NCBI GenBank assembly: GCA_021731085.1
Contig: JAKFYB010000015.1
Span: forward strand, 1 to 64,000
From: Dehalococcoidia bacterium
Lineage (GTDB): Bacteria > Chloroflexota > Dehalococcoidia > DSTF01 > JACRBR01
Length of the DNA stretch: 64,000 bases
Direction of reading: 5' to 3'
Both the position numbers and the translations under genes were made by a program. This document shows, piece after piece, positions 13,664-27,310 of the stretch (positions within the stretch are counted from its first letter, which is position 1; every line of letters begins with the position of its first letter). Below the pieces are notes generated by a model. It was not told the origin of the DNA. It saw only the letters and a program-made list of their open reading frames with translations, and ran no database searches.

Positions 13664-14941
13664 CTACGGGCACTGGCCGGCGGGCGAGATCAGGCTCGCC
13701 AGCGTGCCCATATCGGCCGGATTGATGGTGCCGTCCTTCGTGATATCGAACTCCACGAGGTATTGCGGCGTCATCGACGTGCCGAAGGCGCTCGCCAACG
13801 CACCCTGGTCGGCCACGTTTACGATTCGGTCGGCGTTCAATGACGCGATTTCGCATCCATCACGCGCGCCCGCGCCGCCCGCATCGCCGTCTGTGTCGTT
13901 AGATGCGGGATTGCTGTTGTAGAAGCAGGTCTCGATCCGCGTGGCGATCTTGTCGGCGTCGCCATCGCCCGTCGGGCCGCATGCTGTGACGGCGGGCTTG
14001 CTCAGGACATCGCTCGGGTTCGTTCCGAGCGTGCACTCGATCGCATCGAGGAATCGGTCACCGTCGGTGTCGCGGCGCAGCGGGTTGGTCGCGGCCGTCG
14101 CGGGCGGGCAAGCAGGGCCGGGCAGCGAGAGTTCGTCTGCGTCGGAGAGTCCGTCGTTGTCGTCGTCCGTGTCGCCGCAGCCGTCGCCAAGCAGGTCCGA
14201 GTTCACGTGCGTGAGGTCATCGAACGGCCGTGCGGGCGGCAGGTTGATGTGGTTGTCGTGGTTGAAGCCGATGGCCTTCGTGTTCACTTCAGGCGATGGG
14301 CACGCCAGAACAAAGTCGACGGACGCGTTGTCTGTGTCCGACACCCGGGTGAGGCTGCTGGTGCCATCGCCAACGCCGAATGGCGACGCAGGTCCACCCT
14401 TGATCGGCGGCCCGAGATAGCCACCGTACGGGACACAGTCCACCCAGTTGCTCATGGTTGTGCGCGTCCAAGTCGGTGGATTCAGCGGGAACGCGCCCCC
14501 GCCACCGCCGTGGCAGATCATGCCGGCGGATGGCAGCGTCACCGGCGTGAATGTGAAGTCCGGCGTGACACCGGACGCCGTGGCGAACGCTGGGGTTCCC
14601 ATCAACCACCGGCCGTTCGCGACGCCGGTGGCCACGTTAGTCGGAATCTCCAGGATGTCGCCGCCATAGGAGCCGTCGGAGTTGAAGTACCCGAGGATCG
14701 AGTGAGCGGTGATGTTCTGGCCGCCCGCGAGCATCCGCATCTCGACGTACTGAACGTCGGGATCGCCCGCGCGGCCGAACATCACCTCGTCGATGACCTC
14801 GAAGTGAAAGGCACCTTCCGCCTTTTCCGGGCGGGGCGCAGTGATCGTGAGCACCGTGAACACCAGTGCGGCGGCGATGGCGGCGAACCGCAGGACGTGC
14901 GGCGCGTGTGAGGAGTGGGTTGAGGACTGGAGCAGTCTCAT
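13664..14941 (-). CDS. Secreted protein with calcium-binding and dockerin-like C-terminal repeats
   Basis: The 425-residue protein has a signal peptide (hydrophobic stretch around residues 18-35, cleaved near AEGA). A domain of unknown function with CHGGGGG and WVDCVPYGGY follows. From about residue 255 come thrombospondin type-3-like Ca repeats (GDTDDDNDGLSDADE, DTDGDRFLDAIE). The end is dockerin-like: two halves with LNADRIVNVADQ and DITKDGTINPADMGTLA. The same C-terminal module ends the giant subtilase at 23225, so the two products share an anchoring or calcium-dependent assembly mode. No cohesin is in the window. The catalytic role, if any, is unknown. Confidence 0.75.
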   Translation of the reverse strand: MRLLQSSTHSSHAPHVLRFAAIAAALVFTVLTITAPRPEKAEGAFHFEVIDEVMFGRAGDPDVQYVEMRMLAGGQNITAHSILGYFNSDGSYGGDILEIPTNVATGVANGRWLMGTPAFATASGVTPDFTFTPVTLPSAGMICHGGGGGAFPLNPPTWTRTTMSNWVDCVPYGGYLGPPIKGGPASPFGVGDGTSSLTRVSDTDNASVDFVLACPSPEVNTKAIGFNHDNHINLPPARPFDDLTHVNSDLLGDGCGDTDDDNDGLSDADELSLPGPACPPATAATNPLRRDTDGDRFLDAIECTLGTNPSDVLSKPAVTACGPTGDGDADKIATRIETCFYNSNPASNDTDGDAGGAGARDGCEIASLNADRIVNVADQGALASAFGTSMTPQYLVEFDITKDGTINPADMGTLASLISPAGQCP

Positions 14942-15113: not shown

Positions 15114-17579
15114 CTATGCCGGAACTGCCTCGCGTTCCGGTTCGGCCACGGGCGCTTCCGCCCGTCCGAAGGTGAACTCCTCGCCGTCGTAGTCCACGCG
15201 GACGACGTCGCCTTCCGCGAAGTCGCCGCCAAGGATGCGCTTGGCGAGCGGGTTCTCGATGCGGCGCTGGACGGTCCGGCGCAGGGGACGGGCGCCGTAC
15301 ACCGGGTCGTACCCCTCCTTGACGAGTTCGGCGCGGGCTGCCTCCGTCACTTCGAACTGCACCTGGCGGTCTCCAAGCCGCTTGCCGACTTCCGCCAGCA
15401 TGAGGTCGACGATCGGGCTCAGCTCCTTCACCGTCAGCGGCTCGAAGATGATGATCTCGTCGATGCGGTTGATGAATTCCGGCCGGAACGCCTCGCGCAG
15501 CGCCTTCTCCATCACGTCCTGCCGCTGGTCACGCTGGCTCTCGTCGGCGGCGCGGCTGGACACAAACCCGAACTTGCCCTTCGTATCGGACGTTGTGCCA
15601 AGGTTCGACGTCATGATGATGATCGTGTTCCGGAAGTCCACCGTCCGGCCCTGGCCGTCCGTCAACCGTCCGTCCTCGAGGATCTGGAGCAGCAGGTTGA
15701 ACAAGTCCGGGTGCGCCTTCTCGATCTCGTCGAACAGGATCACGCGGTACGGGCGGCGGCGAACGGCCTCCGTCAGCGACCCGCCATCGTCGTAGCCGAC
15801 GTACCCAGGCGGAGCGCCGACGACACGCGAGACTGTGTGCCTCTCCTGGTATTCGGACATGTCGAGCCGTATCATCGCCTCTTCGTCGTCGAACAGGTAG
15901 CCCGCCAAGGCGCGCGCCAATTCCGTCTTACCAACACCAGTCGGCCCGAGGAAAATGAAGCTTCCGATCGGCCGCTTCGGATCCTTGAGCCCGGCTCGCG
16001 CACGTCGCAACGCTTCGGCGACTGCTTCGACGGCCTTGTCCTGGCCGATAACGCGCTCGTGCAGCACTTCTTCGATGTGCAAGAGCTTTTCTGCCTCGCC
16101 CTCCATCATCTTCTGCACCGGGATGCCGGTGATGGATGCGATGAGATCGGCGATGTCGTGCTCTGTTACCGTCATGTCGGCCGTATGCGTCGCCTCCCAC
16201 TCGGCCTTCGCGGCGTCGTAGTCCGACTGCAACTTGAGCACGTCCTGCTTCAGGCGCGCGGACTCTTCAAAGTCCTCGCGAGTCGAGGAAGCATCAACTT
16301 CTAACTGCAGCTCTTCGAGCCGCTTCAGTAGGTCGCGCAGGTCCGGCGACAACGACTGCTGTTCGATGACGTGCTTGCTCGCCGCCTCGTCGATGAGGTC
16401 GATGGCCTTGTCCGGCAGGAAGCGCTCCGTCATGTAGCGATCGCTCAGGCGCGCTGCCGCTTCGAGCGCTTCGTCGGTGATCTTCACCTTGTGGTGCGCT
16501 TCGTACCGCGGACGCAGACCCTTGAGGATCTCGATCGCGTCCTCCACCGATGGCTCGTCGAGGAACACGGGCGAGAATCGCCGTTCGAGCGCGGGATCCT
16601 TTTCGATGTGCTTGCGATATTCATCGAGCGTGGTCGCGCCGATAACGCGCAGTTCGCCACGAGCCAGCGCGGGCTTCATCATCGTACTGGCATCGATCGC
16701 GCCTTCCGCCGCGCCGGCGCCCATCACCTGGTGCAGCTCGTCGATGAAGATGATGACTTCACCCTCGGCGCGGCGGATTTCGTCCATCACGGACTTCAGG
16801 CGCTCCTCGAACTCGCCCCGGAACTTCGAGCCCGCGACCATCGCGCCGATGTCGAGCGCGAGCAGGCGCTTTCCCTGGACGTTCTCCGGCACGTCGTCCG
16901 CGACGATCTTCTGCGCGAGGCCTTCGGCGATGGCCGTCTTACCAACGCCTGCCTCGCCGATGATGACGGGGTTGTTCTTCGTGCGGCGGTTCAGGATCTG
17001 CATGACGCGCTTGATCTCAAGCTCCCGCCCGATGACCGGATCGAGCTTGCCTTCGCGCGCCGCGGCGGTGAGGTCGACGCTGTACTTCTCCAGCGCGCCG
17101 TATCGGTTCTCCGCCGTAGGAGAATCCACGCGCGCGCTGCCACGCACCTCCTGCAGCGAACGGTATATGCGCTCCTTGTCGATGTTGAACGAGCGCAGGA
17201 TCTCGGCCGACTGACCGTCGCGCTCGTCGGCGATCGCGATGAGGATGTGCTCGACGCCCACGTATTCGTCCTTGAGCCGCTCAGACTCCGCGTTAGCCGT
17301 CTCGAGCATCTTGACGATGCGCGGCGTCGTGTACACCTGCACCACGTCGTAGCCCAACTTCGGCGAGCGGGCGAGTGTGTCCGCGACGCGTGCCGTCAGC
17401 GCAGACATATCGACCTGCATGTGGTCAAGGATCCGGCCGGCGAGCCCATCCTTATGCTGGAGCAGTGCGAGCAGCACGTGCTCGACGTCCCACTGCGAGT
17501 GGCGCTGCGTCCGCACCATCTCCTGCGAGGCCGCGAGCACCTCCTGCGCCTGCTGTGTGAATCTGTCTTGTCTCATCAT
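15114..17579 (-). CDS. clpC: ClpC-type AAA+ unfoldase (ATP-dependent Clp protease subunit)
   Basis: The 821-residue Hsp100 protein has two N-terminal Clp_N repeats ([26 protein letters not shown]). The first AAA module has GEAGVGKTA and [13 protein letters not shown] short middle region carries an UVR-like stretch ([18 protein letters not shown]), and the second AAA module has GPTGVGKTE. The tripeptide FGF in KGKFGFVSS sits where ClpC/ClpA carry the ClpP-docking loop, so it is more ClpC than ClpB. It has no long ClpB coiled-coil. The start at 17579 has AGGAAG upstream; the frame upstream overlaps vapC and is excluded. It is the last gene of the heat-shock operon, 16 bp after the toxin gene. 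Confidence 0.93.
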
Positions 17580-17595
17580 GTCGGTCTTCCTATCT

Positions 17596-17985
17596 CTACC
17601 AAAGTGTTTCGACGACGCCTTCAAATGCAGGATCGGTGGTGACTAGTAAGCCCCCATACAGCTGGGCCGTTGCTGCGATGATCCTGTCGTGCATCTCCAG
17701 CCGCGAACTGATTGCACGCACGGCAGCAAATACGTCGAGGTCGATTGGAGCGACGTGCAAGTTCGGCCTGAGACTTAGCTGATCAAGGATCAAGTCCATA
17801 GTCAGCGGAGTCTTCTGCTTCTCGACCAATCGCAACGCCTCAACGAGCACGATCAAGGGTACGACGATCGGTGTTCTCGTTGAAAAAGCCTCGCGGAGCG
17901 CCAGCCTTGCCCGTTCGGAGAGACGCTTGTCTCTCGCAAGAAACCAAAGAAGGCTGTGAGTGTCTGGAACGAGCGTGTTACTCAT
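17596..17985 (-). CDS. PIN-domain toxin (VapC-like ribonuclease)
   Basis: The 129-residue PIN protein carries the acidic residues of the nuclease: Asp8 in VPDTHSLLWFL, Glu49 in VLVEALRL, Asp99 or nearby in EMHDRIIAATA and Asp117 in VTTDPAF. VapC toxins cleave tRNA or rRNA when not held by their antitoxin. It overlaps the upstream antitoxin gene by 8 bp, so the two are translationally coupled. The pair sits inside the heat-shock operon between hspR and clpC, which is unusual; see findings. Confidence 0.85.
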   Translation of the reverse strand: MSNTLVPDTHSLLWFLARDKRLSERARLALREAFSTRTPIVVPLIVLVEALRLVEKQKTPLTMDLILDQLSLRPNLHVAPIDLDVFAAVRAISSRLEMHDRIIAATAQLYGGLLVTTDPAFEGVVETLW

Positions 17986-18178
17986 TGTCTTGCTTGAGCC
18001 ACGACGTCTTTGCCTCGTTGATCTCGCTCTCCGAAAAGTCCATCCCTTCTAGCAAACCTTCAAGTGGTTTGCTCTCGATTTGCCGCTTGCCCAACAAGCG
18101 CGCACGGAGCGACAGTAGCTCGCGCTCCACTTCATCGAGGCGCTGCAAGGCCGACTTGAGTTCCGTGTCCGTAACCAT
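17978..18178 (-). CDS. Antitoxin of the PIN-toxin pair
   Basis: The 66-residue protein MVTDTELKSALQRLDEVERE is mostly helical and charged, with a likely coiled-coil N-terminal half (DEVERELLSLRARLL) and an acidic C-terminal part (GMDFSESEINEAKTSWL) that fits the toxin-wrapping tail of VapB-type antitoxins. It has no evident DNA-binding fold, so autoregulation may be left to HspR, whose gene lies 12 bp upstream. The call rests on size, position and overlap with the PIN gene. Confidence 0.7.
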   Translation of the reverse strand: MVTDTELKSALQRLDEVERELLSLRARLLGKRQIESKPLEGLLEGMDFSESEINEAKTSWLKQDNE

Positions 18179-18190
18179 GGCTTCTCCCTT

Positions 18191-18529
18191 CTATCCCCGT
18201 GGCGCCGGCAGGCGGCGGTCGCGCTGGCGCTGCAATTCGTCCCGCAGGCGATCCAGTTCTTGCTCTAGCACCTGGATCTTCTCGTTCATGCGCACGATGA
18301 CTTCCGCGCCCGCGAGATTCACGCCGAGATCGGCGACGAGCCGCTGGATCTGCTGCACGCGCTCGATGTCTCGCCGCGAGTAGAGGCGGCGGTTTGCGGC
18401 GCGCTTCGGCTGCACCAGGCCCTGGCGCTCGTACATGCGCAACGTCTGTTGATGGACGCCGACGATGCGCGCCGCGATCGAGATCACGTACACGGGCTCG
18501 TCGGCGTCTGTCATGTGTTCGTTCGTCAT
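18191..18529 (-). CDS. hspR: MerR-family heat-shock repressor HspR
   Basis: The 112-residue protein has a MerR helix-turn-helix: PVYVISIAARIVGVHQQTLRMYERQGL, then RRLYSRRDIERVQQI, which is the HspR form (Q-Q-T-LRxYERxGL). A coiled coil runs through NEKIQVLEQELDRL. HspR represses dnaK/dnaJ/clpB genes, usually with DnaK as co-repressor, by binding HAIR-type inverted repeats. It lies after dnaJ in one operon and should control that operon through the dyad at 19641-19662. GAGGGACC precedes the ATG. grpE and dnaK are not in the window. Confidence 0.92.
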   Translation of the reverse strand: MTNEHMTDADEPVYVISIAARIVGVHQQTLRMYERQGLVQPKRAANRRLYSRRDIERVQQIQRLVADLGVNLAGAEVIVRMNEKIQVLEQELDRLRDELQRQRDRRLPAPRG

Positions 18530-18546: not shown

Positions 18547-18568
18547 CCCTCTCCCAGACGGGAGAGGG
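18547..18568. repeat. Palindrome between dnaJ and hspR
   Basis: A perfect 9-bp inverted repeat (CCCTCTCCC, 4-nt loop, GGGAGAGGG) lies in the 51-bp dnaJ-hspR gap. In the transcript it makes a stable hairpin without a T-run on the hspR side, so it may reduce rather than stop expression of the downstream genes. Confidence 0.7.
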
Positions 18569-18580
18569 GAATAGATGTCC

Positions 18581-19585
18581 TTACACTCCAGCCGCGCTCA
18601 GCTCCTCGAACAGTTGCTTTTGCTTGTCGTCGAGCTGGTCCGGGAGGCGGACCTTCACGCGCGCGTACAGATCGCCCTTGCCGCCACCCTTCACGCGCGG
18701 CATGCCGAGGCCGCCGAGCTTGAAGAGCTTGCCGTTCTGTGTCAGCGCCGGAATCTTGAGCATCACTTTCGCCGTCACCGTCGGCACTTCAACTTCGCCG
18801 CCAAGCACTGCTGTTGTCACCGGAGCATCGACGTCGACGTACAGGTCATCGCCCTTCCGCTCGAAGCGCGGGTGAGGCCGCACATTCACGACGAGCAGCA
18901 GGTCGCCCTTCTTACCACCGCCCATGCCCGGTTGACCTTCGCCCGCGACCTTCACCTTCGCGCCGGTAGCGACGCCGGCTGGAATCTTCACTTCGAGCCT
19001 TCGTGGCTTGCGGATGGCACCGTGACCGCCGCATACATGGCATGTCGCGCCGGCGACCTCGCCCGTCCCGCCACATGTGTCGCACGCCTCCTGCGACACA
19101 AGTTCGAGCGTGCGCGTGGTGCCGTGATAGGCCTCCTCGAAGGTGACGTCCGTTGGTTGCTGCACGTCCTGGCCCCGCCGTGACATCGCACGCTGCTGGA
19201 ACCCGCCGCCCCCGCGCCCGAAGAACGAACCGAAGACACTGCCGAGGTCGCCCATATCGTCCATACCGTTGAGGTCGTATTGGACGCCGCCGTTCCCACC
19301 CTGAAACCCGCCGTTCCCGTAGCGCGCACCGCGGTTGCGCTGCATCTCCTCGATCTGGTCAGCGTGTTCCCAGCGGTCGCCGTACTTGTCGTACTTCTTC
19401 CGCTTGTCGGCGTCGGACAGCACTTCGTACGCAGCCGTTATGTCCTTGAACTTGGCCTCCGCAGCCTTGTCTCCCGGATTCACGTCCGGGTGGTGCTTGC
19501 GGGCGAGCTTCCGGTACGCCGAGCGGACTTCCTTGTCGGAGGCCGTCTTGGGGACACCCAGAGCGGTGTAGAGATCCTTTGCCAT
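18581..19585 (-). CDS. dnaJ: DnaJ/CbpA-type Hsp40 co-chaperone with half zinc finger
   Basis: The 334-residue Hsp40 has a J domain ([21 protein letters not shown] with the HPD signature). A Gly-rich stretch follows ([11 protein letters not shown]), then the C-terminal substrate-binding domains. The zinc region keeps only two CxxCxGxG modules (CDTCGGTG and CHVCGGHG) instead of the usual four. It therefore lies between DnaJ and CbpA in type and could bind one zinc at most. It is the first gene of the minus-strand operon dnaJ-hspR-TA-clpC and diverges from hsp20 across the operator dyad. Confidence 0.93.
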
Positions 19586-19640
19586 GCAATCAGTCTAGCC
19601 AGCCAGATCGCAAACTTTCAAGGCCATTCGTACTATTATT

Positions 19641-19662
19641 GAGTCTTTACCACTAAAGACTC
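19641..19662. promoter_or_regulatory. Operator-like dyad between dnaJ and hsp20 (HAIR-like)
   Basis: A perfect 9-bp inverted repeat, GAGTCTTTA-CCAC-TAAAGACTC, lies between the divergent heat-shock genes and directly abuts the hsp20 -35 box. With flanks it reads TTGAGT...ACTCTTG, close to the half-sites of the HspR element HAIR (CTTGAGT/ACTCAAG), but with a longer spacer. HspR is encoded in the adjacent operon, so this is its most likely site. Confidence 0.7.
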
Positions 19663-19750: not shown

Positions 19751-20254
19751 ATGGCAGATATCACACGATGGGATCCATTCGCAGAGATGTCGGACCTGCG
19801 GCGCGCATTCGACCGCATGTTTGACGACGTGCGGCCTGTGCGGTTCGTCGCTGGCCCGCAGGCGGCAGCCCTGGCAGCCGCACAAGCGCAGGAAAGCTAC
19901 TTCCCCGTCGACCTGTTCGAGACCGATGGCGAAGTCGTCTTGAAGGCGTCGCTGCCGGGTGTGAAGGCGGACGACATCGACATCTCGGTGACCGGCGACC
20001 ACCTCACGCTAACGGCGGAAACAAAGGATGAAACCGAGGAGAAGGGCCAGAACTGGTACCGGCGTGAGCGCCGAAGCGGCACCTTCGTCCGCCAGTTCCA
20101 GCTCCCGACCGAGGTCGACTCGGCGAAAGCCGCGGCGGACTTCGAGGATGGCGTCCTGCGCCTGACGCTCCCGAAGGCGGAGACGGTGAAGCCCAAGACC
20201 ATCAAGGTCGAGGCGAAGGCGGCGCAGCCGACCCTTGAGGCTGCGAAGAGCTAG
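19751..20254 (+). CDS. Small heat-shock protein, Hsp20/alpha-crystallin family
   Basis: The 167-residue ATP-independent holdase has a variable N-terminal arm (ITRWDPFAEMSDLRRAF) and the alpha-crystallin domain from about residue 55. That domain contains KASLPGVKADDIDISVTGDHLTLTAE-type strands and the late GVLRLTLPKAE signature. A basic/Ala tail ends the protein. It is expressed from its own promoter next to the HspR-like dyad, so it belongs to the same regulon as the divergent dnaJ operon. It ends 130 bp before the convergent Fe-S oxidoreductase gene. Confidence 0.95.
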   Translation: MADITRWDPFAEMSDLRRAFDRMFDDVRPVRFVAGPQAAALAAAQAQESYFPVDLFETDGEVVLKASLPGVKADDIDISVTGDHLTLTAETKDETEEKGQNWYRRERRSGTFVRQFQLPTEVDSAKAAADFEDGVLRLTLPKAETVKPKTIKVEAKAAQPTLEAAKS

Positions 20255-23224: not shown

Positions 23225-26200
23225 ATGCAATACCGTTGGGTTGGACGGATGGCCGTCGCGTTCGCGGCCACGTCCGCGGCAATTCTGGCATCCTTCGGGA
23301 CGGCCGACACCGAGCCTCAGGACAGCGACAGCGCGAAGGCCGCCGCGAGCCAGAACAGCGGCGTAGCCTATGTCGATCCAGAAGTCGCGGGACAGGTTCG
23401 CGAGGACGGGTCGGCCCGCGTGGTCGTGTCCTTCTTCGAGTCCGGCAAGCCGCCGGAGACCGATGCCGCCGTTGCCGCCGAATCGGCCCGGGTCGCCGGA
23501 GCGCGTCAGCGGACGCTCTCCGCCGTAGACACAAACGAGTTCGAAGTAAGGCACACATTCAAGGTTGTGCCCGCAGTCAGCGGTGTAGTCACCGAGGAGG
23601 GCCTCGAAGTCCTCGCATCTCAGCCCGACGTCGCTCGCATCTCCCTGGACCGCGAAACGCGCGCCTCGCTGACCGAAGCCGTCGCACTGGTCAATGGCGA
23701 CGACACGCATGCACTCGGTGTCACTGGCGCCGGTGTTGTCGTGGCCGTGCTCGACACCGGCATCGACACCGACCACCCGAATCTCTCCGACGATCTCATT
23801 TTGCAGCGGTGCTACCTCTTCGACGGCACCTGTCCCGGCGGCGGCACAACGGGCACCTCGGCGGAAGACGGCCACGGCCACGGCACTCACGTGAGCGGCA
23901 TCATCACGTCCAGCAACGCCGACGCACGCGGCATCGCGCCCGATGCGCAGATCGCGGCGTACAAGATCCTCGCTGACTCCGGCAACGGCTACTTCAGCGA
24001 CGTCGTTGCGGCGATGGACGACATCATCGTCAACCAACCGAGCGTCGACATCATCAACATGAGCCTCGGATCCTTCGGCACGTACGCGCCGGGCTCCTGC
24101 GAGGCCGTCGATCCAGCGCTGACCAGCGCGATCGCAACGCTGAAAGCGCAAGGTGTCACAGTCTTCGCGGCCAGTGGCAATTCATTCGACGCGGGCGGCA
24201 CATCGCTGCCCGCCTGCATCAACAACGTGATCTCAGTTGGCGCGACGTACGACGCAAACGTCGGCGCGGGCTATTGCGGTGAGCCAACTGTCCCGGATCT
24301 CATCGTGTGCTTCAGCAACTCCGATCCATCACTGGATCTGGTGGCGCCGGGCTCCCTCATCACATCCACCGTCACGGGAGGCGGCCTGGCCACTTTTCAG
24401 GGCACATCGATGGCCTCACCGATGGCCGCCGGCGTCGCCGCGCTCCTCAAGAGCGACGAACCCTTGCTCGCACCATCCGCGATCGAGGCGCGTCTGAAGG
24501 CGACGGGGGTGCCCGTGCTGGATGCGCGCAACAACGTCACGGCCTGCCGCGTCAACGCGCTTGCTGCGGTGCAAAACACCGTTCCAGCCCCACCCTGTGC
24601 CACCGCCGTTGTCGGGCCGCCAAATGACAACGCGATCGATGCGTTGCCGTTCGCGCCGCCGAATCCCCGATCACAGAGCAACTTCGGCGCGACGCGACAG
24701 GCCGGTGAACCACAGGCGTGCGGCGGCATCGGTTCGACCGTCTGGTTCCAGTACACCGCGCCCGCGACTGCAACCGTGACGTTGCACACCGCCGGAAGCA
24801 CGTTCGACACCGCCCTCGCGATGTACGTGAAGACCGGGCCCGGAACACTGGGCACGTTCCTCGGCTGCAACGACGATACCGGCGGCACGCTCCAGTCCAA
24901 ACTCACCCTCGGCGTGACAGTGGGGACGACGTACTACATCCAAGCCGGCGGCTTCAACGGCAACCAGGGCCTCCTAACGCTATCGATGCCGCCTTCAAAC
25001 GACGACTTCGCCGGACGCCGCACGCTGCTGCCACCGCCGACACCCTGGAATCAGTCGACGGCGGGGGCATCCACCGAAATAAACGAACCGCTGCCTTGCA
25101 ACATGGGCGGCGCCACCGTCTGGTTCAGCTTCGTCGCACCAATGACGGGATTCGCGACCGCGCAGACGGCCGGCAGCAGCTTCGACACGGTCATCGGCGC
25201 GTACGACACGGCGTCGTCACCGTCAGGCCAGCTGAACCTTCTGAACTGCAACGACGACGCGGGGGGCACGCTCCAATCGGCCGTCGACCTCCCGGTGACG
25301 TCCGGCACGACGTACTACGTGCAGGCCGGCGGCTACGTCGGCCAGTCCGGCGACCTCACGCTCGAGCTGTCATTCGGGTCGAGCTGCTTCGTGCCGAATG
25401 ACAATTTCTTCAGCGCGACGTTCCTCATTGCGCCGACAAGCACATCGCAGTGCACGACGGGCGCATCGATCGAGGGCGGTGAGCCGCTTCCTTGCGGGAT
25501 GGTCGGAAAAACGGCGTGGTTCACGTTCTTCGCAGACGAGGACGCAGTCGCGATAATCAGCACGTTTGGTAGCGATTATGACACCGTTGTCGCTGCGTAC
25601 GACGCAGCGGATTCACCGCCAGGTCAACTAGGTACCCTTCTCGCCTGCAACGATGACGCTGGCGGCGCCAGCCAGTCCGAAGTCCTCGCGCAACTCGTTG
25701 AAGGGCGCCAGTACTTCGTTCAGGCAGGCAGCCGCGGCGCGCTCGGCGGATCGCTCTCCCTCAATGTCTCCACCGCATCTCTCTGCCTGCCACCAAATGA
25801 CCACGTCGGCAACGCGTCAACGCTCGTCTCCGGAGGCTTCGACACGCAATGCACGGGCGGTGCTGGTGTCGAAGCGGGCGAGAATCTGCCATGCGGCATC
25901 GGTAGCACAGTGTGGTATCGCTACGACGCAACAGCCGATGGCGTGCTCGAGGTGAACGTCAACGCTGACTTCAACACGGTGCTGGCGGCCTACGAGGGCA
26001 TGGTGTCCCCGCCGGGAGTGCTCGGCTACATCGCCTGCAATGACGACGTGCAACCAGGCGATTCGTCGTCCGGCGTCGCGATCGGGGTTCAAGCTGGACG
26101 CAGCTATTACTTCCAGGTCGGCGGACTCGGCGGCGCCACGGGCGAACTGAGCATCTATGCTTCTCTCCGCCCCGGGTGTGTCGAACCCCAGAACCAGCAG

Positions 26201-27310
26201 GCAGCTGCGCGTGTCGCTCTCGGCAATGAGTACAACCTCGTCTGCACTATCGACGCCACGCTACAAGCAGGCGAATCGCAGCCATGCGGCGCCATCGGTG
26301 CGTCGCTGTGGTACCGCATCACGCCAAACATCAGCGGCACGATGAACGTCGCCGTCGAATACGCAACGTTCGACACCGTGCTGGCCGCGTACCAGGGGCT
26401 CCCTGCGCCCGGCGGTGGCGGTCCACTCCTTACATGCAACGACAACGGCGGCGCGTTCGCCGGCGCTTCGGCCATCTCGTTCAACGCGACGGCGGGCGTC
26501 CAGTACTACCTGCAGGTTGGCGGCGCGAGCGGCGCTGCCGGCATGGTCAGCTTCCGCGCGACGTGCGTTGCTGATACCGACTGCGACGGCGTGCTTGCAA
26601 CCGACAACTGCGGAATCCAGAACCAGTCGCAGGTGAACACCGACAACGGGCCGTTGCTAACGCCGGGCCGCCCGAATGATGTCACCGTCGCCCACGGCGA
26701 ACAGAACAACGTACCACTAGGCGCTCCGTGCGACATCGACAGCGACAACGACAACCTGCTGGACTTCGAGGAGCCGCAGCTTGTATCGCCACCAGGTTGG
26801 CCGCGCCCGTGCGCGCCTAGTGTCGGTTCTCTGAATGTGTTGAACGCCGACACCGACGGCGACAGAGTCATCGACTTCGCTGAGTGCCGCCTTGGTTCCA
26901 ATCCACTGAGCGCGGCATCGAAGCCACCGGTTCTATCCGTCGCCCTCGATCCCGACCGTGACCGGCTCTCGACGGCGTTCGAGGAATCCATCGGCAGCGA
27001 TCCGAATGACCTCGACACCGACGACGATGGGTTCAGTGACCTGATCGAGTACTTCGGCTACGGTACCGCCCTCTGGTCGGTCGATACCGACAACGACAAC
27101 TGCTCCGACGGCATCGAGATCGCGTCTGTGGACACGAACACGGCGGTCAATTCGAACGACTTGCTCATCGTCGCGCTGCAGTTCGGCACCCCGGCGCTGG
27201 TGCCGGACATCAATAAGGACGGGACGGTCAATCCCGCGGATCTGGGGCTCGTCGCGAGGAACTACGGCAATGCGCCGGTCATTAGATGTGGAGATCCGCT
27301 GCCCGGCTAG
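23225..27310 (+). CDS. Giant secreted subtilisin-like protease with five repeat domains and dockerin-like end
   Basis: The 1361-residue exported S8 protease has a signal peptide to about residue 27 and an I9-like propeptide to about 145. The catalytic domain has Asp177 (VAVLDTGID), His219 (HGHGTHVSG), Asn319 (AASGN) and Ser395 (GTSMASP), all in place. From about 465 to 1120 there are five repeats of about 115 residues. Each starts PPND-like, carries a ...CG..G.tvWf.y core and ends with CNDD...YY.QaGG, typical of PPC-like beta domains. The end has calcium repeats (DSDNDNLLDFEE, DTDDDGFSDLIE) and a dockerin-like pair (NSNDLLIVALQFG, DINKDGTVNPADLGLVA). It probably digests extracellular protein while anchored or assembled through the C terminus. 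Confidence 0.9.
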   Translation: MQYRWVGRMAVAFAATSAAILASFGTADTEPQDSDSAKAAASQNSGVAYVDPEVAGQVREDGSARVVVSFFESGKPPETDAAVAAESARVAGARQRTLSAVDTNEFEVRHTFKVVPAVSGVVTEEGLEVLASQPDVARISLDRETRASLTEAVALVNGDDTHALGVTGAGVVVAVLDTGIDTDHPNLSDDLILQRCYLFDGTCPGGGTTGTSAEDGHGHGTHVSGIITSSNADARGIAPDAQIAAYKILADSGNGYFSDVVAAMDDIIVNQPSVDIINMSLGSFGTYAPGSCEAVDPALTSAIATLKAQGVTVFAASGNSFDAGGTSLPACINNVISVGATYDANVGAGYCGEPTVPDLIVCFSNSDPSLDLVAPGSLITSTVTGGGLATFQGTSMASPMAAGVAALLKSDEPLLAPSAIEARLKATGVPVLDARNNVTACRVNALAAVQNTVPAPPCATAVVGPPNDNAIDALPFAPPNPRSQSNFGATRQAGEPQACGGIGSTVWFQYTAPATATVTLHTAGSTFDTALAMYVKTGPGTLGTFLGCNDDTGGTLQSKLTLGVTVGTTYYIQAGGFNGNQGLLTLSMPPSNDDFAGRRTLLPPPTPWNQSTAGASTEINEPLPCNMGGATVWFSFVAPMTGFATAQTAGSSFDTVIGAYDTASSPSGQLNLLNCNDDAGGTLQSAVDLPVTSGTTYYVQAGGYVGQSGDLTLELSFGSSCFVPNDNFFSATFLIAPTSTSQCTTGASIEGGEPLPCGMVGKTAWFTFFADEDAVAIISTFGSDYDTVVAAYDAADSPPGQLGTLLACNDDAGGASQSEVLAQLVEGRQYFVQAGSRGALGGSLSLNVSTASLCLPPNDHVGNASTLVSGGFDTQCTGGAGVEAGENLPCGIGSTVWYRYDATADGVLEVNVNADFNTVLAAYEGMVSPPGVLGYIACNDDVQPGDSSSGVAIGVQAGRSYYFQVGGLGGATGELSIYASLRPGCVEPQNQQAAARVALGNEYNLVCTIDATLQAGESQPCGAIGASLWYRITPNISGTMNVAVEYATFDTVLAAYQGLPAPGGGGPLLTCNDNGGAFAGASAISFNATAGVQYYLQVGGASGAAGMVSFRATCVADTDCDGVLATDNCGIQNQSQVNTDNGPLLTPGRPNDVTVAHGEQNNVPLGAPCDIDSDNDNLLDFEEPQLVSPPGWPRPCAPSVGSLNVLNADTDGDRVIDFAECRLGSNPLSAASKPPVLSVALDPDRDRLSTAFEESIGSDPNDLDTDDDGFSDLIEYFGYGTALWSVDTDNDNCSDGIEIASVDTNTAVNSNDLLIVALQFGTPALVPDINKDGTVNPADLGLVARNYGNAPVIRCGDPLPG

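What the first reader, a model, noticed from the sequence alone, without database searches (positions are those of the whole stretch)
17596..18529. PIN toxin-antitoxin pair embedded in an HspR/ClpC heat-shock operon
The order dnaJ-hspR-antitoxin-toxin-clpC is tight (51, 12, -8 and 16 bp), so all five should share one transcript under HspR. Antitoxins are normally removed by Lon or Clp proteases, and here the unfoldase gene directly follows the toxin. Heat shock would raise the toxin, antitoxin and the unfoldase that could free the toxin. A stress-response circuit joining protein damage to RNA cleavage is plausible and, to my knowledge, not an established arrangement. The coupling is inference; the gene order is seen.
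Basis: partly seen in the sequence, partly recalled or inferred. Interest (0 to 1): 0.72.

Follow-up and report, generated by a model that had tools for sequence, protein, structure and literature searches.

The report
Toxin pair in variable heat-shock slot
A small RNA-cutting toxin gene and its likely antidote gene sit inside a bacterial heat-shock operon, but they look like recent arrivals in a spot between two conserved genes where related bacteria carry many different unrelated genes, so this is more a recurrent landing slot than a built-in stress circuit.

Summary
The gene order is real: dnaJ-hspR-antitoxin-PIN toxin-clp on the minus strand, with spacings 51, 12, -8 and 16 bp. The toxin has an intact PIN active site and a VapC fold. 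The 66-aa antitoxin belongs to a small unannotated family that precedes PIN genes in three other phyla. A HAIR-like HspR operator lies upstream of dnaJ, and no internal promoter or terminator was seen, so co-transcription under HspR is likely but unmeasured. The dedicated stress circuit is not supported: the pair is absent at this junction in three of eight family members, is the lowest-GC stretch of the window, and its antitoxin family occurs in 2 of 400 phylum genomes. One other genus (G006) has a PIN pair here, with an antitoxin alike only at its C-terminus. The stronger finding is the junction itself. In 28 of 128 junctions read across the class, same-strand genes of unrelated families (PIN, HEPN pairs, HNH, PLD, nuclease-like, 23S IVP, YtfJ, methyltransferases) sit between hspR and clp, whereas the adjacent dnaJ-hspR junction gains essentially only HtrA. 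Some junctions carry duplicated clp 5' ends. So this is a VapBC-like module in a recurrent cargo slot inside a heat-shock operon.

The parts
17596..17985 (-). PIN-domain toxin gene (VapC-like, 129 aa)
   Evidence: PF01850 E=8e-15; D8, E49, D100, D118 invariant in 16 homologues; AlphaFold2 model pLDDT 95.6, Foldseek to VapC structures E=2e-6, TM about 0.75
17978..18178 (-). candidate antitoxin gene (66 aa), overlaps toxin by 8 bp
   Evidence: no Pfam/NCBIfam family; relatives lie directly upstream of PIN genes in L074, L075, L079; conserved C-terminal motif resembling a toxin-binding tail; no DNA-binding domain found
18191..18529 (-). hspR, MerR-type heat-shock repressor (112 aa)
   Evidence: MerR_1 1.8e-17; NCBIfam HeatShock_HspR 103.8 bits vs cut-off 105; conserved next to dnaJ across the class
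15114..17579 (-). clp, ClpC-type AAA+ unfoldase (821 aa)
   Evidence: best PDB match ClpC in one stretch 5-809, ClpB in two; ClpP-loop-length segment KGKFGF aligned with ClpC
18581..19585 (-). dnaJ (334 aa), first gene of the operon
   Evidence: DnaJ and DnaJ_C Pfam
19638..19658 (.). HAIR-like inverted repeat, candidate HspR operator in the dnaJ/hsp20 intergenic region
   Evidence: CTTGAGT-N7-ACTCAAG with 2 mismatches, the only such site in 64 kb; HAIR matches enriched upstream of dnaJ in relatives
17580..18190 (-). hspR-clp junction: variable cargo slot, here filled by the antitoxin-toxin pair
   Evidence: 28 of 128 junctions occupied by unrelated co-directional genes; lowest-GC 583 bp of the window
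18547..18568 (.). palindromic repeat (CCCTCTCCC/GGGAGAGGG) in the dnaJ-hspR gap
   Evidence: inverted repeat I7, 9 bp perfect arms
19751..20254 (+). divergent hsp20, shares the promoter region
   Evidence: HSP20 Pfam 4.5e-23

Best explanation
A VapBC-like (PIN) toxin-antitoxin module was acquired horizontally and settled between hspR and clpC in an otherwise conserved dnaJ-hspR-clpC heat-shock operon. It is read from the HspR-controlled dnaJ promoter together with the chaperone genes. The antitoxin binds and blocks the PIN RNase through its C-terminal tail, and the toxin acts if the antitoxin is lost. The junction is a recurrent landing and retention site for small co-directional genes in this bacterial class, several of them RNase, nuclease or defence-type, so the position next to clpC is more likely a property of the slot than of an antitoxin-ClpC circuit. 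Shown: gene order, domain and active-site integrity, low GC, absence in relatives, varied occupants of the slot. Inferred: co-transcription, HspR control, toxicity and neutralisation, horizontal origin.
For: Order and spacings. Intact PIN site and VapC fold. Antitoxin relatives paired with PIN genes in other phyla. HAIR-like operator. Pair absent from the junction in family members G002, G004, G005, where hspR-clp gaps are 60-140 bp. Antitoxin family in 2 of 400 phylum genomes. Antitoxin plus toxin GC 55% against 64% for the operon, the lowest of all 590-bp windows. The junction is occupied in 28 of 128 cases by unrelated same-strand genes, against essentially only HtrA at dnaJ-hspR. A second PIN pair at the same junction in G006.
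Against: The G006 pair at the same place could mean an old, selected association with repeated loss; the PIN tree does not resolve G000 against G006. No transcript data. Short tight spacing could reflect selection for heat-shock co-expression rather than neutral parking. Low GC is common for toxin-antitoxin genes and does not date the insertion.
Confidence: 0.72

Rival explanations
1. Dedicated stress circuit: heat relieves HspR, which raises toxin, antitoxin and ClpC together, and ClpC-ClpP degrades the antitoxin to release the RNase, so protein damage triggers RNA cleavage.
For: Tight operon with a HAIR-like operator. ClpC-type unfoldase with a ClpP-loop-length insert and ClpP in the genome. 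ClpC1P1P2 degrades VapB20 in M. tuberculosis (PMC8165232). PIN pairs at the same junction in two genera.
Against: Absent from the junction in G002, G004 and G005. The same slot holds many genes with no such logic. The antitoxins in G000 and G006 differ except at the C-terminus.
Confidence: 0.12
2. The hspR-clp junction is a defence landing site under positive selection: phage infection or stress induces the HspR operon, so RNase or nuclease defence genes placed there gain useful inducible expression. (This is an extension of the best explanation, so its confidence overlaps with it.)
For: PIN twice, HEPN pairs three times, HNH, PLD matching PADLOC candidate PDC-S05 (4.5e-23), nuclease-like ECK-motif proteins three times. 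All are co-directional.
Against: Other occupants are not defence-like (YtfJ, methyltransferases, DoxX-like). PADLOC has no hit for the pair itself. Co-directionality is also expected simply because opposed genes would disturb clp. No comparison with other operon junctions was made beyond dnaJ-hspR.
Confidence: 0.3
3. Chance insertion with no functional link: the pair is a selfish addiction module whose place in the operon means nothing.
For: Rare antitoxin family, low GC, patchy presence.
Against: The junction is far more often occupied than its neighbour (28/128 vs 1/124 non-HtrA, Fisher p=2.6e-8), and G006 has a PIN pair in exactly the same place, so the site is not random.
Confidence: 0.2

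Closest known systems
VapBC type II toxin-antitoxin systems
   Same: PIN toxin with four conserved acidic residues, short overlapping upstream antitoxin gene, VapC fold
   Different: antitoxin has no recognisable DNA-binding domain and no Pfam/NCBIfam family; sits in a chaperone operon instead of behind its own promoter
mazEF-sigB of Staphylococcus aureus and Listeria monocytogenes
   Same: toxin-antitoxin pair co-transcribed with a stress regulator operon (PMC5308263)
   Different: conserved head-of-operon position and MazF toxin; here internal, PIN-type and lineage-specific
Core defence hotspots such as cDHS1 and cDHS2 of Pseudomonas aeruginosa (PMC10250203)
   Same: fixed flanking core genes with highly varied small cargo
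   Different: those are kb-scale islands; here one to three genes inside an operon, all co-directional
HspR-HAIR heat-shock operons of Streptomyces and Helicobacter (PMC6102357)
   Same: HspR repressor gene linked to chaperone genes, HAIR-like operator
   Different: variable foreign genes between hspR and clp

Membership tests
VapBC toxin-antitoxin | PIN-domain toxin with conserved acidic active site | tested here: met
   PF01850 and D8/E49/D100/D118 invariant in 16 sequences; VapC structural matches
VapBC toxin-antitoxin | antitoxin gene directly upstream, often overlapping, and recurring as a pair | tested here: met
   8-bp overlap; same antitoxin family upstream of PIN in L074, L075, L079
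VapBC toxin-antitoxin | antitoxin with a DNA-binding domain that autoregulates (definition in the abstract of PMC3834315) | tested here: inconclusive
   no DNA-binding family detected by Pfam, NCBIfam or PDB profile search; a short unknown fold is not excluded
VapBC toxin-antitoxin | toxin inhibits growth and antitoxin neutralises it | not testable with these tools
   needs expression assays
HspR regulon | HspR-family repressor | tested here: inconclusive
   NCBIfam HspR 103.8 bits, just under the 105 cut-off; orthologous and dnaJ-linked in most relatives
HspR regulon | HAIR operator upstream of the operon | tested here: met
   2-mismatch HAIR at 19638-19658; one exact and several near-exact sites upstream of dnaJ in relatives; binding itself untested
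ClpC | short middle domain and ClpP-binding loop, unlike ClpB | tested here: met
   single-stretch alignment to ClpC, split alignment to ClpB; KGKFGF segment aligned with the ClpC loop region. ClpP binding itself untested
defence hotspot | diverse non-homologous cargo between fixed core genes | tested here: met
   nine homologous cargo groups plus singletons in 28 of 128 junctions
defence hotspot | cargo proven or predicted to be anti-phage | tested here: inconclusive
   PLD cargo matches PDC-S05, HEPN marginal to PDC-M05B, others none

The most novel reading that the evidence does not exclude
In this class the hspR-clp junction of the heat-shock operon is a dedicated landing slot into which RNase, nuclease and other small defence or toxin genes are repeatedly inserted and kept because HspR control gives them stress-inducible expression; insertion happens at the clp start by a process that duplicates the clp 5' end and so spares the gene.
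Probability: 0.25. Interest if true: 0.72.

Novelty: new variant of a known kind. Interest (0 to 1): 0.5.

Why it matters
A fixed, easily found junction inside a heat-shock operon that repeatedly collects toxin, RNase and nuclease genes would be a compact place to find new defence or toxin-antitoxin families. It would also test whether bacteria recruit foreign toxic genes under chaperone control. It corrects the simpler idea that one toxin beside one protease means an evolved circuit.

Tried and rejected
Single-sequence PDB search with the toxin gave only chance hits; the profile and fold searches were needed. Antitoxin PDB searches gave no real hit. The toxin tree could not decide whether the G000 and G006 pairs share an origin at this site. 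PADLOC gave nothing for the pair. The G034 antitoxin-like hit is not followed by a PIN gene. The partial ORF after hspR in G001 has no Pfam hit and no relative in 301 phylum genomes, but that search had no positive control. Literature searches combining HspR, ClpB, VapBC and toxin-antitoxin terms found no report of this arrangement; the library is open-access only.

Full report
OBSERVATION. On the minus strand the order is dnaJ 19585-18581, hspR 18529-18191, a 66-aa ORF 18178-17978, a PIN protein 17985-17596, and clp 17579-15114, with gaps of 51, 12, -8 and 16 bp. A divergent hsp20 starts at 19751. The genome is a 3.58-Mb draft in 52 contigs, and the window is the start of contig 7.

THE PAIR. 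The 129-aa protein matches Pfam PIN at 8e-15. Across 16 homologues the four acidic positions D8, E49, D100 and D118 are invariant. The AlphaFold2 model is confident (pLDDT 95.6), and its nearest solved structures are VapC toxins, led by Shigella VapC (E=2.2e-6, TM about 0.75). The 66-aa protein has no Pfam or NCBIfam family. Relatives lie immediately upstream of PIN genes in a Bacteroidetes MAG, an Ignavibacteria MAG and a Lindowbacteria MAG (L074, L075, L079). They share a short N-terminal segment that reads as a helix and a conserved C-terminal motif. That is how a toxin-antitoxin pair behaves. No DNA-binding domain was found, so the pair may not regulate itself in the usual VapB way (inference). 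The antitoxin family is rare: 2 of 400 phylum genomes, the second of them without a PIN gene next to it.

THE OPERON. Clp is of the ClpC type: solved ClpC chains align in one stretch (residues 5-809), ClpB in two, and the segment KGKFGF falls at the ClpC ClpP-loop. ClpP genes are present, and so is a second Clp paralogue at C2:92469-94934, 51% identical. The published HAIR consensus CTTGAGT-N7-ACTCAAG (PMC6102357) occurs with 2 mismatches at 19638-19658, the only site that good in 64 kb. Sites upstream of dnaJ with 3 or fewer mismatches are seen in 12 of 113 relatives, including one exact match, against 4 of 565 shuffles. The scan found no promoter-like or terminator-like site on the minus strand between hspR and clp, but it expects only about one promoter by chance and would miss many. 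A 9-bp perfect hairpin lies between dnaJ and hspR. Co-transcription is therefore likely, not shown.

RELATIVES. The order has 18 held genomes. In the family, G002, G004 and G005 have hspR followed by clp after 60-140 bp with nothing between. G001, of the same genus, has a different ORF beginning right after hspR, but its contig ends there. G003 and G007 cannot be read across. G006 carries a coiled-coil-like antitoxin and a PIN gene (37% identical to the window's) directly before clp (83% identical), and a second, about 80% identical copy directly after hspR, on two contigs. Two tandem pairs in one junction is the simplest reading, but this is unresolved. The PIN tree leaves open whether the G000 and G006 pairs are one old insertion or two.

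THE SLOT. I read 126 hspR-clp junctions across the class, plus G000 and G006. 96 of the 126 have gaps under 200 bp (median of all 86). 28 of 128 hold at least one ORF of 80 aa or more on the operon strand, and no clear opposed cargo gene was seen; one (L208) is doubtful. The cargo is unrelated from genome to genome. Seen were HEPN plus an unknown partner three times, PLD-like twice (PADLOC PDC-S05 at 4.5e-23), HNH, 23S rRNA intervening-sequence protein twice, Spore_YtfJ four times, two kinds of methyltransferase, a 255-285-aa family with a PD...ECK nuclease-like motif three times (my reading; no Pfam hit), a family starting with a likely membrane helix, a 95-aa family four times, and DoxX-like proteins (my reading, not tested). 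Within one genus (g91) the occupants differ: G265 methyltransferase, G106 nuclease-like, G243 none. The adjacent dnaJ-hspR junction is a built-in control: of 124 read, 8 exceed 300 bp, and where a clear gene is there it is one family, which reads as an HtrA-type protease. 28/128 against 1/124 non-HtrA gives Fisher p=2.6e-8; against all 8, p=5e-4. Two limits apply. Genomes are not independent, and about 13 junctions whose hspR and clp fell in one match were not fetched, which would lower 28/128 to about 20%.

TRACES OF INSERTION. In G017, G092, G288 and G251 the slot contains extra copies of the clp start region, with matches of 45-63 bases at 93-100% identity beginning at or just before the clp start codon; repeat-like or palindromic sequence often lies between such a copy and the gene. 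In G288 this has happened twice. So DNA has entered at the clp start while an intact start was kept. G000 has no such copy. The mechanism is unknown. The window pair has GC 55% against 64% for its neighbours, the lowest of any 590-bp window, which fits recent acquisition, and the filled gaps are lower in GC than hspR in 22 of 25 junctions, non-coding bases included.

INTERPRETATION. The simplest account is a VapBC-like module that entered a recurrent cargo slot and is read from the HspR promoter. The antitoxin-ClpC coupling is biochemically possible, since ClpC1P1P2 degrades VapB20 in M. tuberculosis (PMC8165232), and a pair joined to a stress operon has a precedent in mazEF-sigB (PMC5308263). 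But the presence of many other genes in the same place means the neighbourhood alone is weak evidence for it. What remains surprising is the slot: repeated, co-directional, often RNase or nuclease genes between hspR and clp. I found no published description in the held library.

Noticed in passing
L096, L113, L118, L119 (hspR-clp gaps): Extra copies of the clp start region (45-63 bases, 93-100% identical) sit in the gap, some next to palindromic repeat elements; in L118 this occurs twice. Suggests insertions at the clp start that keep an intact gene.
   Followed up: partly
L093 1-808 and L094 1-520: G006 has two about 80% identical antitoxin-PIN copies, one after hspR and one before clp, on two contigs: likely tandem pairs.
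   Followed up: partly
L097, L101, L106, L109, L113, L114, L120 (dnaJ-hspR gap): A gene that reads as an HtrA/Deg-type serine protease lies between dnaJ and hspR in several lineages.
   Followed up: partly
L113, L179, L186: A HEPN gene followed by a 140-162-aa unknown partner gene recurs in the hspR-clp slot in three distant genomes; may be an undescribed two-gene RNase system.
   Followed up: no
L159, L166, L175: A 255-285-aa family with a PD...ECK nuclease-like motif and no Pfam hit recurs in the slot in three genomes.
   Followed up: no
window 23225-27310: A 1361-aa ORF that reads as a subtilisin-like secreted protease with repeats and a C-terminal dockerin-like stretch; a shorter ORF at 13664-14941 has a similar end.
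   Followed up: no
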